64,000 nt of DNA from Cytophagales bacterium (GTDB taxonomy: Bacteria; Bacteroidota; Bacteroidia; Cytophagales; Bernardetiaceae). The notes below the pieces were generated by a model. That model did no database searches. It was not told the DNA's origin and worked only from the letters and a program-made list of their open reading frames with translations. This document shows, in pieces, positions 27,000 through 47,077 of the stretch. The stretch spans positions 124,001 to 188,000 of the forward strand of contig JAAFJX010000002.1 in NCBI GenBank assembly GCA_013299045.1, written 5' to 3'. Made by a program: the position numbers and the translations under genes. Positions within the stretch are counted from its first letter, which is position 1, and each line of letters begins with the position of its first letter.

Positions 27000-27465
27000 G
27001 TCTTCCCTTAAAAAACATATAAAGTATTTATTGTCAGTAAATTAAACAAGAATTCCATCTTTAAAATCTCTTAGTTTTTAGCCTATTTTGTTAAATAACT
27101 GGTAAAACCTCAAGGGCTTCTTACGGCCTGCCATGCCTCGCATCAGACAAAAGCGAATGGCTCAAATGTCAGAGGGTGAGATTTTCTGTGCAACTCTGTT
27201 TTGTAAGAGAGTGAATCAAAGAAAAAGTCATTCGCTGTTTTAGATGAAAAAAGCCTATTTTTTTCATCTAAATTGGCCTTTTGCGAGGCTTGATTTTTTT
27301 GCTATGCCCTACGGTCGGAACTTTCAGCTCGCGCTTCAGTTCTGCATCAAGGCAAAAAGTAGAGAAGAGAAGTCTATCAAAGGCCGTCAAGGTGTTCCCA
27401 AAATAGGCAAGCTATCCTCCTTAAATTTAGTTTACATCTATTGAATGTACTTTTTAAGGGACTAC
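27000..27465. mobile_element. Non-coding MITE-like element, copy A (466 bp)
   Basis: The ends are inverted repeats: the left end reads GTCTTCCCTTAAAAA and the right end reads GTAGTCCCTTAAAAA on the other strand. The flanks GATTTA (26994-26999) and TATTTA (27466-27471) match at 5 of 6 bases, like a decayed 6-base target duplication. Inside is a hairpin with 14-base arms (27238-27272, TTTAGATGAAAAAA and its complement). It shares long stretches with copies B and C. The longest reading frame is a short repeat-derived one that is not conserved, so I see no transposase. It lies between the convergent subtilase and DUF5606 genes. Confidence 0.8.
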
Positions 27466-30258: not shown

Positions 30259-30365
30259 CTCGTCCCTTAAAAAAAATATATATAGTAGCCCCTTAGAATG
30301 TATCTAAAGTATTTTTTATCAGGGAATTAAACAAGAATTTCATCTTCAATTTTGCAGACTCTTAG
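30259..30365 (+). repeat. Decayed left end of the MITE-like element
   Basis: CTCGTCCCTTAAAA at about 30259 and, 30 bases on, TAGTAGCCCCTTAGAATGTA, then TATCTAAAGTATTTTTTATC, AATTAAACAAGAATTTCATC and CTCTTAG. These match the left 75 bases of copies A-C, with the outermost end apparently present twice. No right end is found, so it is a remnant. It occupies most of the useful sequence in the 416-base gap before the helicase gene; nothing else is recognised there. Confidence 0.7.
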
Positions 30366-30495: not shown

Positions 30496-33400
30496 GTGCA
30501 AAAAGTGCTGCGCCTCTACCAAAAACGCCTCACCAATCTTTCCGCGAATAACCGCTCTCTGCTGCTTTTGCGCTTGCTTGCAGGCCAGTATGTGGACATA
30601 CACGAGGCTGATTTTTTACTCAAAAACTCCTCTTTTTACATCATTAAGCAGCTTTTGGCTCAAGTCAGTAAAATTCCGCTCTGTGCCGAATTGGATAGCC
30701 GCCACAAGCCTTCAAATCTTTTTAGCCAAAAGTTAAAACACCTCCACCGAACGGATTTACACGTTGCCGAAGAGTGCGGTGCGCAGGATATGCACTTGGG
30801 CTTTCCTTTTGTTGAGGGCAAACTATTGGACGATACGCCTATTCGCTGCCCGCTTTTGCTCTTTCCTGTCCAGCTCCAGAAGCAAGAAAATATGTGGTTT
30901 TTGAAGCCCAGAGCCGACCAGCCTCTTACTTTCAACAAAGACTTTCTGCTCGCCTACGCTCATTTTAATAAAGTAAAAATTAGCGAGGAGCTTCAGGATA
31001 CTGATTTTGAAGAACTCAGCAAAGATAGCATCAAGTTCCTGACCGAACTCTACCAGTTGCTCACAAACAGCACCCTAGAGCTAGATTTCAACCCCGAAAC
31101 TTTTACCGAGCGCTTGGAGTCTTTTTTGCCACACTCACGCGCAGCTTGGCAACAAAGCCAACAACAAGGCCGCCTAAAACTTGTTCCTCAGGCTGTTTTA
31201 GGGCTTTTTCCACAGGCTGGCTCCTATCTGTCCCCCGATTACGATTTTCTCCTCCAGCACACCGAAAGCCCAGATATTGCCCAATTTTTTGCGCATTTGC
31301 GGCAGGAGCCTCAGCCCGTGCGCGAAGAGCAGATTCACGGTATTTTTGCTCAAGATGCGTCCCAAGAGGCTGTTATGCGGGCAGTACGCGGAGGTGCGTC
31401 CGTGGTGGTACAGGGGCCTCCCGGCACTGGCAAATCTCAAGTGATTAGTAACCTCATAGCTGATGCCCTCGCACGTAATCAGCGCGTGCTGGTGGTATGC
31501 CAAAAAAAGGCTGCCCTTGATGTAGTTTTTGAGCGCCTCAAAAGCAAGGGCCTTGAGCGCTTCATGGCTTTAGTACACGACTTTAGGCATGACCGCAAAG
31601 ATGTATTGGCCAAAATTGTAACGCAAATTGATGCCCTAGACGACTACACCCAAGAAAATAACGCCCTGGACACCGTTTTTCTGGAGCGCGAATACAAGCA
31701 AGCCTGCCGCACCATAGACAGACTTTCCGAAGACCTCGAAGCATTCAAAAAAGCACTTTTTGACAACAAAGCCTGCGGTTTAGCACCCAAAGACCTTTAT
31801 CTCACTTCCGAGCAACAAACAGCACATATTTCACTCGATGCGCACTTCAAAAAATTTCATTTTGCGTCTTATAATAATTTTTTGCAGACGCTAAAGCGCT
31901 TTGTGCAATATGCTCAAAAGTTGGATTTAGAGGGTTATTTGTGGCGAAACAGAAAAAGTTTTGCCAACTACCAACTAGCTGATTGGCCTAATATCTTGAG
32001 CACTCTAGCCGATGTCCCGTCTTTCAAAAAGCGTATTTCTGAAAGTATAGGCACACTTTTGGGCTTACACGCATTGCCCTATCCCAACTGCGAGGCGCTC
32101 TGGCTTTTGCAGCCCGAAGCTGAAACTTTGCGCACTTACATACAAGATGAACGCACTTTTGCGTTTCTGAAAACTGCTTTTCCCTACGAATCTGCCCAAA
32201 TTACTTGGCTGGAGGAAAAGGAGAAGGCCATTACTGAAGGCTTGGCAGGCGTAGGGCCAGAAGTTCATTTGGCTTTACCAGACCTCAACGCCGTAGAAGA
32301 AGCCGTAAAAGCCTATAAATCTGCTCAAAGCCAAACTTTTAGCCGTTTGTATTGGCAACTGTTTTCGCCCACACAAAAGAAATTGGTAGAAGAAAGCCTG
32401 CTCCGAAACAATTTGACAGCCACCACCGAATCTTTTGATATACTCCTCTTAATGATTCAAAACCGTCGCACACTTGAGCGCGAAGTGCAAGAGTTGCGCC
32501 AAGCGGAATGGCTGACGGACGTGCCGCACGATTTGCGCAAAGACCTCTTTGTTACATGGTTTCAAAAGTATAAAACAGCCCTGCAAGCCAAGTTTTTGCT
32601 TCAGAAGCTCCTCAAATTAGTGCCTACTGACCTCAACATTCCAGACCGTTTGCACAAACCGTTTTTAGAACTAATAGACAAGCTCTATGCGCATTTGGCA
32701 GAACTGCCCCAAAAGCATCTGGCATGGAAAAATTGGTTGTTGGAATCACAAATTCGGGCTATTTTGAATGACACCCACAAAGTTGAAGAGCTAAGTGCAG
32801 TGCTCCAAAAAGATTTTGATTTGCTCTGCGAGTTTGACCGCCTCAAAGCTCAAATACCAGGCTTTGAGTTAGAAGTCATAACTTTGCTTAACAAGCACTT
32901 GGGTCTGTATGATGCCGATAAAATGTGCGCCCTTTTTGACAATAGCCTGCGCTTGGCCTGGTTGAATGAACTGGAACTGCAAAACCCTGTTTTAAGGACA
33001 GTTTCTGCTCTGCAACACAGCCAAGATGTGGAGCAGCTAGACGCTTCAACGACTCAAAAGCACCAACTGAACACGCAATATATGCTGCTGAAGGCCAAAG
33101 AAAGAACTTACAGGAACGTACAGTACAACCGCCAAAAAAACCGCAGCACTTATAAAGACTTGGAGCATCAAAGCAAAAAAAAACGTGGAGTATGGCCTTT
33201 GCGCAAAGTTATCAGCACTTTTCAGTCCGAACTCTTTGACTTGATTCCTTGCTGGTTGGCCTCTCCAGAGTCCAGCTCTGCCCTTTTTGATATGACCACC
33301 CACTTTGACTTGGTCATTTTTGATGAGGCTTCACAATGCTTTGCAGAACGCGGTATTCCCGCAATTTTCAGAGCCAAGCAAGTGGTTATTGCGGGTGATG

Positions 33401-34485
33401 ACAAGCAACTGCGTCCTTCAGACCTCTATACGCACCGGTGGGACGATAGCGAAGCCCTCGAAGAGGCCAGCGTCAGCGAACAAACTGTTCTCGAAGTAGA
33501 GTCCCTTCTAGACTTAGGCAAGCAATTTTTACCGGAATACACGCTGCTGGGGCACTATCGCAGCAAGGCCACCGCCCTCATTGCTTTTTCTAATGCGCAT
33601 TTTTATCAGAATAGACTCAGGGTTATTCCGCATATCAGCACACTTGAGCCACAACAGGCTGCCATTCGCTACATCAAGGTAGAAGGCACAAGCCACAAAA
33701 GCGAAAACCAAGAAGAGGCGATGGAGGTGCTGAGGCTAGTTAAATCCTTGATTTATAGCGGCAAAAAAGATATTGGCATTATTACTTTTAACTATAAGCA
33801 GCAAGAATTGATTGCAGACTTACTAGACCTGACCGAAATGGCACTGCCCCCTCAGCTTTTTGTCAAAAACATAGAAAACGTACAAGGAGATGAGCGCGAC
33901 ATCATTATTTTTTCGGTGGGTTATGCGCCAACTGAAAAAGGCCGTTTTGAGGCTAAATTTGGCTCATTAAACCTTGAAGGCGGCGAAAATAGACTGAACG
34001 TGGCCATATCCAGAGCCAAAGAACAAATCTACGTAGTGAGCAGCATTTGGCCACATGAGTTGCAAGTAGAACAAACGCTTAACCATGGCCCCAAGCTCTT
34101 GAAAGCCTATTTACAGTACGCCCATGCGGTGTCGGAAGGGGAGCGCAACTTTGGAGCACCCAGCAATAACAATCAACCCAGCACGAGTCTGTTTTTATGG
34201 CAAAAAATTCAGGCTGCCTGGCAAAATAGCCATTTTGAATTACTGCAGCAATGGCCTTTTGCAGACCTCACGCTACAAGCCGAGCAGCAAAAGCCAGTGG
34301 GCTTGATTCTGACGGACGATGCGCTTTACTACAAGAGCTTATCGGCCAAAGATGCACACGTTTATATTCCTGCCTTGCTACGCGAAAAGGGCTGGCCGCT
34401 CCAAGTAGCGCATAGCCGCAATTTTTGGCTGAATGCCCAAGAAGAACTCAATAATCTGAAAGTTTGGGCGAGTTCTTTAAGCTGA
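30496..34485 (+). CDS. Large SF1 (Upf1/Dna2-like) helicase with degenerate Vsr-like C-terminus
   Basis: The protein has 1329 residues; the start is GTG, with no in-frame ATG between it and an upstream stop. The N-terminal region (RLYQKRLTNLSANNRSLLLLR) resembles DUF4011-type helicase proteins. Walker A is GPPGTGKS (Lys313) and motif II is VIFDEAS (Asp943, Glu944), about 630 residues apart, with a long helical insertion between. Late motifs are VQGDERDIIIFSVGYAP and LNVAISRAKEQIYVV. Residues about 1250-1320 align in pattern with the Vsr/MTES_1575 nuclease domain, but the usual GIECDG reads GLILTDD, so a catalytic Glu is missing. The DUF4011-helicase-Vsr layout is that reported for the phage-defence protein Hhe; defence function here is inference. 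Confidence 0.85.
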   Translation: MQKVLRLYQKRLTNLSANNRSLLLLRLLAGQYVDIHEADFLLKNSSFYIIKQLLAQVSKIPLCAELDSRHKPSNLFSQKLKHLHRTDLHVAEECGAQDMHLGFPFVEGKLLDDTPIRCPLLLFPVQLQKQENMWFLKPRADQPLTFNKDFLLAYAHFNKVKISEELQDTDFEELSKDSIKFLTELYQLLTNSTLELDFNPETFTERLESFLPHSRAAWQQSQQQGRLKLVPQAVLGLFPQAGSYLSPDYDFLLQHTESPDIAQFFAHLRQEPQPVREEQIHGIFAQDASQEAVMRAVRGGASVVVQGPPGTGKSQVISNLIADALARNQRVLVVCQKKAALDVVFERLKSKGLERFMALVHDFRHDRKDVLAKIVTQIDALDDYTQENNALDTVFLEREYKQACRTIDRLSEDLEAFKKALFDNKACGLAPKDLYLTSEQQTAHISLDAHFKKFHFASYNNFLQTLKRFVQYAQKLDLEGYLWRNRKSFANYQLADWPNILSTLADVPSFKKRISESIGTLLGLHALPYPNCEALWLLQPEAETLRTYIQDERTFAFLKTAFPYESAQITWLEEKEKAITEGLAGVGPEVHLALPDLNAVEEAVKAYKSAQSQTFSRLYWQLFSPTQKKLVEESLLRNNLTATTESFDILLLMIQNRRTLEREVQELRQAEWLTDVPHDLRKDLFVTWFQKYKTALQAKFLLQKLLKLVPTDLNIPDRLHKPFLELIDKLYAHLAELPQKHLAWKNWLLESQIRAILNDTHKVEELSAVLQKDFDLLCEFDRLKAQIPGFELEVITLLNKHLGLYDADKMCALFDNSLRLAWLNELELQNPVLRTVSALQHSQDVEQLDASTTQKHQLNTQYMLLKAKERTYRNVQYNRQKNRSTYKDLEHQSKKKRGVWPLRKVISTFQSELFDLIPCWLASPESSSALFDMTTHFDLVIFDEASQCFAERGIPAIFRAKQVVIAGDDKQLRPSDLYTHRWDDSEALEEASVSEQTVLEVESLLDLGKQFLPEYTLLGHYRSKATALIAFSNAHFYQNRLRVIPHISTLEPQQAAIRYIKVEGTSHKSENQEEAMEVLRLVKSLIYSGKKDIGIITFNYKQQELIADLLDLTEMALPPQLFVKNIENVQGDERDIIIFSVGYAPTEKGRFEAKFGSLNLEGGENRLNVAISRAKEQIYVVSSIWPHELQVEQTLNHGPKLLKAYLQYAHAVSEGERNFGAPSNNNQPSTSLFLWQKIQAAWQNSHFELLQQWPFADLTLQAEQQKPVGLILTDDALYYKSLSAKDAHVYIPALLREKGWPLQVAHSRNFWLNAQEELNNLKVWASSLS

Positions 34486-42004: not shown

Positions 42005-42032
42005 AAATACAGGCCAATAGACGTACTAGATA

Positions 42033-42462
42033 GTCTTCCCTTAAAATATATCTAAGGTATTTATTATCAGTAAATTAAACAAGAATTTTATCTTTAAAAT
42101 CTCTTAGTTTTTAGCCTATTTTGTCAAAAAACTGGTAAAACCTCAAGAGCTTCTTACGGCCTGCCATGCCTCGCATCAGACAAAAGAGAATGGCTCAAAT
42201 GTCAGAGGGTGAGATTTTCTGTGCAACTCTGTTTTGCAAGAGAATGAATCAAAGAAAAAGCCATTCGCTGGTTTAGATGAAAAAAGTTGCTTTTTTCATC
42301 TAAATTGGCCTTTTGCGAGGCTTGATTTTTTTGCTACTTTTTGCATCAAGGCAAAAAGTAGAGAGAAAATGCCACCCAAAATCATGAGGGTGTTCCTAAA
42401 GCAGATAAATCATATCAATCAATTGATGTGCTTGTTCTTATGCAGACTTTTTAAGCGACGAC
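42033..42462. mobile_element. Non-coding MITE-like element, copy B (430 bp), nested
   Basis: Left end GTCTTCCCTTAAAA; right end, on the other strand, GTCGTCGCTTAAAA. It is flanked on both sides by TAGATA (42027-42032 and 42463-42468). Removing the element and one TAGATA restores GTAC-TAGATA-ACAAAA, matching the uninterrupted N-type repeat at about 47350. Inside are a perfect 15-base hairpin around TTG (42272-42304) and an 11-base one, CTACTTTTTGC/GCAAAAAGTAG (about 42334-42361). There is no transposase. Confidence 0.85.
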
Positions 42463-46875: not shown

Positions 46876-47077
46876 GGCCGTTTCTCTATGAACCAAGATG
46901 GAGGTACTTGACACAAACAAAGGGTGCGGCATGATACAAAACGTATGTAGTCGTCCCTTAAAATACATCTAATATATTTTTTTATCAGTAAATTAAACAA
47001 GTATTTCATCTTTAAAATCTCTTAGTCATTTATTAAAACCGTTCTTTCCGCAGAGTTGCGGGGGTTCTTAACGAAAG

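What the first reader, a model, noticed from the sequence alone, without database searches (positions are those of the whole stretch)
30496..34485. DUF4011-helicase-Vsr architecture (Hhe-like) with a decayed nuclease domain
The domain order matches the single-protein defence system Hhe (DUF4011-helicase-Vsr). The Walker motifs are intact, but the nuclease segment reads GLILTDD where active relatives have GIECDG, so the Glu is absent. It is also preceded by a MITE remnant. It may be a defence helicase that lost its nuclease or uses a partner nuclease.
Basis: partly seen in the sequence, partly recalled or inferred. Interest (0 to 1): 0.55.

Follow-up and report, generated by a model that had tools for sequence, protein, structure and literature searches.

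The report
Resident helicase with altered nuclease domain
This gene encodes a large DNA/RNA helicase that most sampled families of one bacterial order carry as an ordinary resident gene; its nuclease-like tail has lost the usual cutting residues but keeps a different, tightly conserved set, so it looks re-purposed and not simply decaying.

Summary
Window 30496-34485 encodes 1329 aa: DUF4011, an intact UPF1/SMUBP2-like SF1 helicase, and a tail modelled as a Vsr-type nuclease fold. The catalytic Glu is absent. But the tail is not simply decaying: Asp-Asp is in 90 of 90 and Thr-Asp-Asp in 89 of 90 distinct complete order domains, and dN/dS there is 0.04-0.18 in the 8 of 14 close pairs with usable dS. 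It is not Hhe or ProA by curated cut-offs (299 vs 2000; 500 vs 1500 bits). It behaves as a resident Cytophagales gene: 137 of 138 sampled genomes in 12 families (182 of 291 order-wide), stable neighbours within four genera, a tree largely matching RpoB, few defence neighbours. Bacillota relatives keep the Glu, so the change probably arose in this lineage; Glu was also lost elsewhere in the superfamily. Two genera show that the acids are not all needed: g34 lost Asp1257, g46 lost Thr-Asp-Asp. Best reading: a domesticated nuclease-helicase whose Vsr-like domain now binds nucleic acid without canonical cleavage. Function (upkeep or standing defence) is untested. The 'MITE remnant' is a genome-wide repeat.

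The parts
30272..30349 (.). copy of a dispersed short repeat (MITE-like remnant) upstream of the gene; not part of the system
   Evidence: 40 matches besides itself in own genome (190 candidates, 40 scored); further copies at window 27005-27064, 42027-42097, 46938-47015
30496..34485 (+). whole gene, 1329 aa, GTG start
   Evidence: many order orthologues align from residue 1-5 to about 1313-1327
30679..30939 (+). DUF4011 domain (residues 62-148) inside a conserved N-terminal region (1-285)
   Evidence: AF2 model pLDDT 87.0, no PDB match of note (best Z 2.6)
31411..31437 (+). Walker A QGPPGTGKS (residues 306-314)
   Evidence: G307 P308 P309 G310 G312 K313 S314 invariant in 23 rows
33322..33333 (+). 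Walker B DEAS (residues 943-946)
   Evidence: D943 E944 S946 invariant in 23 rows
34183..34482 (+). Vsr/MTES_1575-like C-terminal domain (about residues 1230-1329)
34264..34266 (+). Asp1257, at the place of the first catalytic Asp (Vsr Asp51)
   Evidence: D in 62 of 68 order rows; Ala in five genomes of genus g34 and Thr in G076, read directly; role of Vsr Asp51 from PMC11879112
34312..34320 (+). Thr1273-Asp1274-Asp1275 replacing Cys-Asp-Gly of ECDG; residue 1272 is Leu where relatives have Glu
34348..34350 (+). Lys1285: K in 65 of 68 order rows (R in 2, one gap); outside rows 10 R, 3 N, 1 K of 17

Best explanation
The gene is the Cytophagales member of the DUF4011 helicase-nuclease superfamily (that of Hhe, ProA and PDC-S37) and is inherited as a resident gene. 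Mechanism proposed: the two RecA-like halves hydrolyse ATP and move along single-stranded nucleic acid as in UPF1/SMUBP2; the DUF4011 region and the long helical insert position or regulate the substrate; the C-terminal Vsr-like domain no longer cuts by the canonical chemistry but acts as a nucleic-acid-binding or regulatory module, carried by conserved Thr1273-Asp1274-Asp1275, Lys1285, Trp1300 and Ser1307-Arg1308. Shown here: superfamily relationship, intact ATPase motifs, fold by prediction, loss of the canonical residues, conservation of the replacement motif, purifying selection, resident inheritance. Inferred: translocation, binding without cleavage, and the cellular role (nucleic-acid upkeep or a standing guard against foreign DNA).
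For: Distribution: orthologue-level matches (E<=1e-60) in 182 of 291 order genomes: 137 of 138 in 12 families, 36 of 45 in f10, 9 of 45 in f12, 0 of 63 in eight families (my tally). In 377 further phylum genomes the best match is one 207.9-bit piece, in a ProA-type protein. Neighbours on at least one side are shared in each of 4 genera, 21 genomes. Gene tree vs RpoB, 28 genomes: 11 of 25 splits shared (500 label shuffles: mean 0.29, maximum 3); 1 of 14 strong helicase splits conflicts. Order clade monophyletic, support 1.0. DD 90/90, TDD 89/90, Glu 0/90. dN/dS of the domain 0.04-0.18 in 8 of 14 pairs, the other six having dS above 2 or saturated. Vsr-like fold. The acids are dispensable in places: Thr-Asp-Asp is gone in 5 of 5 genomes of genus g46 while the helicase and the Lys remain, and Asp1257 is Ala in five genomes of genus g34. 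Precedent for a Vsr-like domain whose authors infer binding without cleavage: FASTKD4 (PMC11879112, passages).
Against: The near-invariance of Thr-Asp-Asp with Lys1285 is also what a metal-binding active site would look like, so catalysis is not excluded. Gene and RpoB distances correlate only modestly (Pearson 0.38, Spearman 0.28), so some transfer is possible, and 109 of 291 order genomes lack the gene, many but not all of them small, so it is not essential to the order. The domain evolves faster than the N-terminus (32% vs 52% mean column identity). There are no expression, ATPase, binding or nuclease data.
Confidence: 0.5

Rival explanations
1. The C-terminal domain is still a nuclease with a rewired site: Asp1257 and Asp1274-Asp1275 bind metal and Lys1285, on the next helix, replaces the usual third residue.
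For: T1273, D1274, D1275 and K1285 stand out in a domain with 32% mean column identity; active Vsr also lacks the Glu (Phe62); by secondary structure they lie at the ends of the second and third strands and the start of the next helix of the model.
Against: Asp1257 is Ala in genus g34 and Thr in G076; the place of Vsr His69 is H in only 16 of 68 order rows; genus g46 lost Thr-Asp-Asp; no distances were measured in the model.
Confidence: 0.16
2. It is a resident (core) anti-phage protein: a ProA/Hhe-type defence helicase fixed in the order, acting alone.
For: Best curated relatives are named anti-phage (PDC-S37 473.9 bits; ProA 500.1 bits). Glu-less domains also occur in proteins that pass the ProA cut-off (L146-L150), so Glu loss does not bar that filing.
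Against: Below both NCBIfam cut-offs. Among 119 neighbours of 20 order loci 25 PADLOC models matched, against 168 models among 112 neighbours of 20 other DUF4011 loci, type I R-M and HerA models included (these count models, not genes). Stable locus within genera and mostly vertical tree. None of this excludes a core defence role.
Confidence: 0.2
3. A decaying nuclease on its way out.
For: Canonical residues gone; domain evolves faster than the N-terminus; Thr-Asp-Asp lost in genus g46 and Asp1257 in genus g34.
Against: DD in 90/90 and TDD in 89/90 distinct order domains outside g46, dN/dS 0.04-0.18 in usable pairs; the change is shared by the whole order clade.
Confidence: 0.06
4. The helicase works with a separate partner nuclease.
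For: Helicase-nuclease pairs such as Hachiman exist (PMC12278908, start of abstract in a search listing).
Against: No nuclease family among nine flanking window proteins scanned (one had no family); the only gene cluster present in all 21 loci compared is the gene itself, the next being in 5 of 21. A partner encoded elsewhere was not looked for.
Confidence: 0.06

Closest known systems
ProA (NCBIfam NF058533) / PDC-S37 (PADLOC) anti-phage proteins
   Same: DUF4011-helicase-Vsr-like order; best whole-protein scores (500.1 and 473.9 bits); some proteins over the ProA cut-off also lack the Glu
   Different: 1329 aa against a 1903-position model, score a third of the cut-off; resident and near-universal in 12 families; TDD motif
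Hhe (NCBIfam NF042953, PADLOC PDLC02194)
   Same: domain order
   Different: 298.7 vs cut-off 2000 bits; model of 1797 positions; few defence neighbours
Short DUF4011 helicases of Bacillota (e.g. L212 Cytobacillus gottheilii, L217 Bacillus sp., L228 Fredinandcohnia)
   Same: match the query from residue 1-2 to 1318-1321; 1261-1282 aa open frames
   Different: these three keep IECDGAMYHSS and a following RD; Clostridia relatives such as L218 and L222 keep the Glu in another form (IETD)
MTES_1575 (Vsr-type REase domain named in PMC3710099, passages read)
   Same: SF1 helicase with a Vsr-type REase domain
   Different: about 2000-aa protein with transglutaminase, HEPN and winged-helix parts; canonical motif in Pfam relatives
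Core DUF4011 gene flanking defence hotspot cDHS1 of Pseudomonas aeruginosa (PMC10250203, passages read)
   Same: a DUF4011 gene found in every isolate as a flanking core gene
   Different: only a marker there; its sequence was not compared here
Vsr and I-Bth0305I (3r3p)
   Same: predicted fold of the C-terminal domain; Asp at the Asp51 place; no Glu in E. coli Vsr either
   Different: Vsr His64 and mostly His69 not kept
FASTKD4 RAP domain (PMC11879112, passages read)
   Same: Vsr-like fold that its authors infer to bind without cleaving
   Different: eukaryotic mitochondrial RNA protein; no helicase part was mentioned in the passages
SMUBP2/UPF1 helicases
   Same: helicase core (4b3g E 1.8e-13)
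   Different: matched only over the helicase part of this protein

Membership tests
Hhe (NF042953) | whole-protein score at or above 2000 bits | tested here: not met
   298.7 bits
Hhe (NF042953) | DUF4011 + SF1 helicase + Vsr-like C-terminus in that order | tested here: met
   Pfam; fold by prediction
Hhe (NF042953) | anti-phage activity | not testable with these tools
   none
ProA (NF058533) | whole-protein score at or above 1500 bits | tested here: not met
   500.1 bits
PDC-S37 (PADLOC candidate) | match to PDLC05009 | tested here: inconclusive
   473.9 bits over 275-1322; PADLOC's threshold is not shown by the tool; three proteins over the ProA cut-off score 1132-1230
REase_MTES_1575 (PF18741) | Pfam gathering score 38.2 | tested here: not met
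   18.1 bits for the C-terminus alone
REase_MTES_1575 (PF18741) | E-x-D-G catalytic motif (motif recalled, and seen in outside relatives) | tested here: not met
   L-T-D-D here; Glu in 0 of 90 order domains
Vsr-like nuclease fold | predicted core matching a solved Vsr-like domain | tested here: met
   pLDDT 89.5, 3r3p_A Z 9.9 over 91 residues; Foldseek alone not significant
Vsr active site | Asp51 paired with His69 | tested here: not met
   Asp present here, but the His place is Tyr (His in 16 of 68 order rows); pairing from PMC11879112
SF1 UPF1-like helicase | intact Walker A, DEA(A/S) box and motif VI Arg (motif names recalled) | tested here: met
   G310 K313 S314, D943 E944, R1173 invariant in 23 rows; AAA_11/AAA_12 above cut-off

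The most novel reading that the evidence does not exclude
An immune-type nuclease-helicase was domesticated early in the Cytophagales into a resident nucleic-acid surveillance machine whose Vsr-like domain has a new Thr-Asp-Asp...Lys metal site with a chemistry unlike that of its defence relatives; the same catalytic Glu was dropped independently in at least one, probably two, other DUF4011 lineages.
Probability: 0.12. Interest if true: 0.65.

Novelty: new variant of a known kind. Interest (0 to 1): 0.42.

Why it matters
Defence-finding profiles score this gene against Hhe, ProA and PDC-S37, and a reader will list it as an immune system, yet it is inherited like an ordinary resident gene across most sampled families of an order. 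It offers a case of an immune-type enzyme becoming resident, with a swap of catalytic residues that marks one clade, and it shows that loss of the catalytic Glu in this domain recurs, even among proteins that pass the ProA cut-off. These points can be tested directly in laboratory Cytophagales.

Tried and rejected
A first gene-tree comparison used a wrong open frame for one genome and gave a false long branch and Pearson 0.05; corrected, the one cited. Profile comparison with E. coli Vsr was not significant (hhalign probability 0.3%). Sequence search of the PDB with the domain profile gave nothing (best E 0.21). The DUF4011 model found no PDB fold of note (best Z 2.6, Foldseek best E 0.95); this does not show a new fold. 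The I-Bth0305I structure paper was not held.

Rows dropped or corrected; two of 29 outside rows (L162, L164) were not classified by the motif pattern, and L077 was misread by it (IECDGAKY); of 114 candidate loci 113 gave a domain, 91 distinct; L211 gave none (its tail is the g46 type) and L024 ends at a contig edge, leaving 90; L009 and L030 were caught at a wrong upstream place and are read as TDD from the alignment (L009 through L049, same gene); three loci (L189, L201, L209) are named only as Bacteroidetes MAGs; the five g46 genomes are not in that count; seven of 17 outside rows have a gap at the first Asp column; neighbours within three open frames, called by script, proteins over 1500 aa left out. 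The holder threshold E<=1e-60 was chosen after seeing a gap between 7.2e-50 and 6.6e-61 in the order; it is not a perfect divider, as one ProA-type protein outside reaches 5.9e-62; G126, just over it, was checked by its tail (115 bits).
Full report
What is there. The window (C9:124001-188000 of a 4.06-Mb draft genome) carries one open frame at 30496-34485 (+), GTG start, 1329 aa. Pfam finds DUF4011 (residues 62-148), the two halves of an SF1 helicase (AAA_11, AAA_12, above cut-off) and only a sub-threshold MTES_1575 nuclease hit at the C-terminus (18.1 bits against 38.2 when scanned alone). The helicase core is nearest to SMUBP2/UPF1 among solved structures by sequence (E 1.8e-13). Walker A, the DEAS box and Arg1173 (motif VI by recall) are invariant in 23 aligned orthologues.

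Filing. The best curated relatives are PDC-S37 (473.9 bits) and Hhe (208.4) in PADLOC, ProA (500.1, cut-off 1500) and Hhe (298.7, cut-off 2000) in NCBIfam. It belongs to their superfamily but fails both NCBIfam cut-offs. For comparison, five proteins of 1897-1980 aa from the same phylum (four from the same class) score 1971-2224 for ProA.

The nuclease-like tail. AlphaFold2 on residues 1185-1329 with 44 orthologues gives mean pLDDT 89.5. VIA-align ranks the Vsr-like homing endonuclease I-Bth0305I first (3r3p_A, Z 9.9, rmsd 2.8, 91 of 97 residues), then a mitoribosomal protein (Z 7.3), which I take from recall to be of RAP type, then nucleases such as a VRR_NUC domain (6.3), BpuSI (5.8) and Hjc (5.5). 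The tool notes a typical best Z of 7-8 for models without a clear match, and Foldseek's own E-values are not significant (best 0.13), so the fold call rests on the aligner, the residual Pfam similarity and the aligned relatives.

The residues. Against relatives with (I/V)ECDG this protein has ILTDD: Glu to Leu1272, Cys to Thr1273, Asp kept (1274), Gly to Asp1275. In 68 distinct order rows aligned by script (one row gapped from there on), Asp1274 and Asp1275 are in 67, Trp1300 in 67, Thr1273 in 66, Ser1307 in 66, Lys1285 in 65, Arg1308 in 65 and Asp1257 in 62. In a wider set of 90 complete distinct order domains, Asp-Asp is in 90, Thr-Asp-Asp in 89 and Glu in none. Nei-Gojobori dN/dS of the domain is 0.04-0.18 in the 8 of 14 pairs with dS below 1.3; in the other six dS was above 2 or saturated. 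This is conservation. E. coli Vsr reads IFTHG there (Phe62-Thr63-His64), so lack of Glu does not by itself mean inactive; but the His69 that pairs with Asp51 in Vsr (PMC11879112, passages) is mostly not kept either.

Exceptions that speak against an essential active site. In genus g46 of family f8 (five of five genomes) the helicase is there but the tail is shortened and Thr-Asp-Asp is gone, while the Lys of the next helix stays in all five and Ser-Arg clearly in one. A named MAG (L211) has the same tail type. In genus g34 (five genomes fetched) Asp1257 is Ala, and in G076 it is Thr, with Thr-Asp-Asp kept.

Inheritance. Named relatives show the order to be Cytophagales. Of 291 order genomes 182 have an orthologue-level match (E<=1e-60): 137 of 138 in 12 families, 36 of 45 in f10, 9 of 45 in f12, 0 of 63 in eight families, of which f7 and f21 have small genomes (my tally from the tables, the 137 by subtraction). 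In the phylum sample of 392 genomes, 15 are from the order sample; in the other 377 the best match is one piece of 207.9 bits, in a protein that passes the ProA cut-off. In a phylum sample of 296 the tail profile scores 92-162 bits in ten order orthologues and at most 51 elsewhere; two divergent order orthologues score 64.5 and 70.4, and Bacillota relatives reach 75, so the profile alone does not divide them.

Within four genera (21 genomes) at least one flank is shared by all members. Between families no other gene cluster is in more than 5 of 21 loci, and the same-genus genome G121 has other neighbours within 8 kb, so the place moves over long times. Gene and RpoB trees for 28 genomes share 11 of 25 splits (500 shuffles: mean 0.29, maximum 3), one of 14 strong helicase splits conflicts, and distances correlate at 0.38 (Pearson; 0 of 2000 permutations as high). 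This is mainly vertical descent with room for some transfer.

Context. Proteins near it here are a subtilase, a DUF5606 protein, a GTPase (EngB-like by recall), a beta-lactamase-family hydrolase, an ABC ATPase, a sigma factor, an amino-acid permease and a SpoIIE-type signalling protein; one has no Pfam family. Among 119 neighbours of 20 order loci 25 PADLOC models matched: 13 DpdF models in one protein, RtcR, DndA, SspA, PsyrT, mad2/mad3 (mad3 in three proteins), a Cas3-like, PD-Lambda-2_B and BrxHI; I take several of these to be RecQ, SufS and sigma54-activator proteins, which is inference. Among 112 neighbours of 20 other DUF4011 loci (Hhe/ProA-type and shorter) 168 models matched, with type I R-M genes and HerA among the 25 shown. 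These count models, not genes. Some order genomes carry a second, long copy as well (G091, open frame 1869 aa; G043, 1618 aa), so the resident gene is not simply an allele of it.

Origin. In a 56-protein helicase tree the 27 order proteins are monophyletic (support 1.0). Bacillota relatives that match end to end, such as L212, L217 and L228, keep IECDGAMYHSS. Of 29 outside rows 20 keep the Glu (L077 read), 7 lack it and 2 were unclassified. The Glu-less ones form two groups (L146-L150, support 0.997, nested with Glu-bearing ProA proteins at 0.999; L151-L152, 1.0). The node that sets L151-L152 apart from the order clade has support 0.74 only, so with the Glu ancestral there were at least two losses, three on the best tree.

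Reading. The most likely account is domestication of an immune-type nuclease-helicase into a resident helicase whose Vsr-like domain binds rather than cuts, as its authors infer for FASTKD4 (PMC11879112, passages). A rewired nuclease and a core anti-phage role remain open. A DUF4011 gene is likewise core in P. aeruginosa (PMC10250203, passages).

Noticed in passing
window 27005-27064, 30272-30349, 42027-42097, 46938-47015: Copies of a dispersed repeat of about 60-78 bp, at least 40 further copies genome-wide at 79-88% identity; a MITE-like family of this genome.
   Followed up: partly
L146-L150 (proteins of 1897-1980 aa): Proteins passing the curated ProA anti-phage cut-off that lack the catalytic Glu (ILLDS, IVIDG, ILVDS, ILTDG, IICDG), nested with Glu-bearing ProA proteins.
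   Followed up: partly
L151, L152, L244, L248, L265: Further long DUF4011-type helicases with hydrophobic residues at the Glu place (IMIDD, IMVDD, ILIDK, ILVDT), in several phyla by record title.
   Followed up: no
L272, L274-L277 (genus g46 of family f8): Orthologues with the helicase but a shortened C-terminal domain without Thr-Asp-Asp.
   Followed up: partly
L092-L096 (genus g34 of family f18): Asp1257 replaced by Ala (PFSALTV) while Thr-Asp-Asp is kept.
   Followed up: partly
L036:12231-14417, L047:1288-3474, L052:2541-4718: A RecQ-like helicase gene lies within about 7 kb of the orthologue in three loci of three families, directly beside it only in L036.
   Followed up: partly
window 30496-31350: The DUF4011 N-terminal region is predicted with good confidence (pLDDT 87) but found no solved fold of note; 13 invariant residues in 44 rows.
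   Followed up: partly
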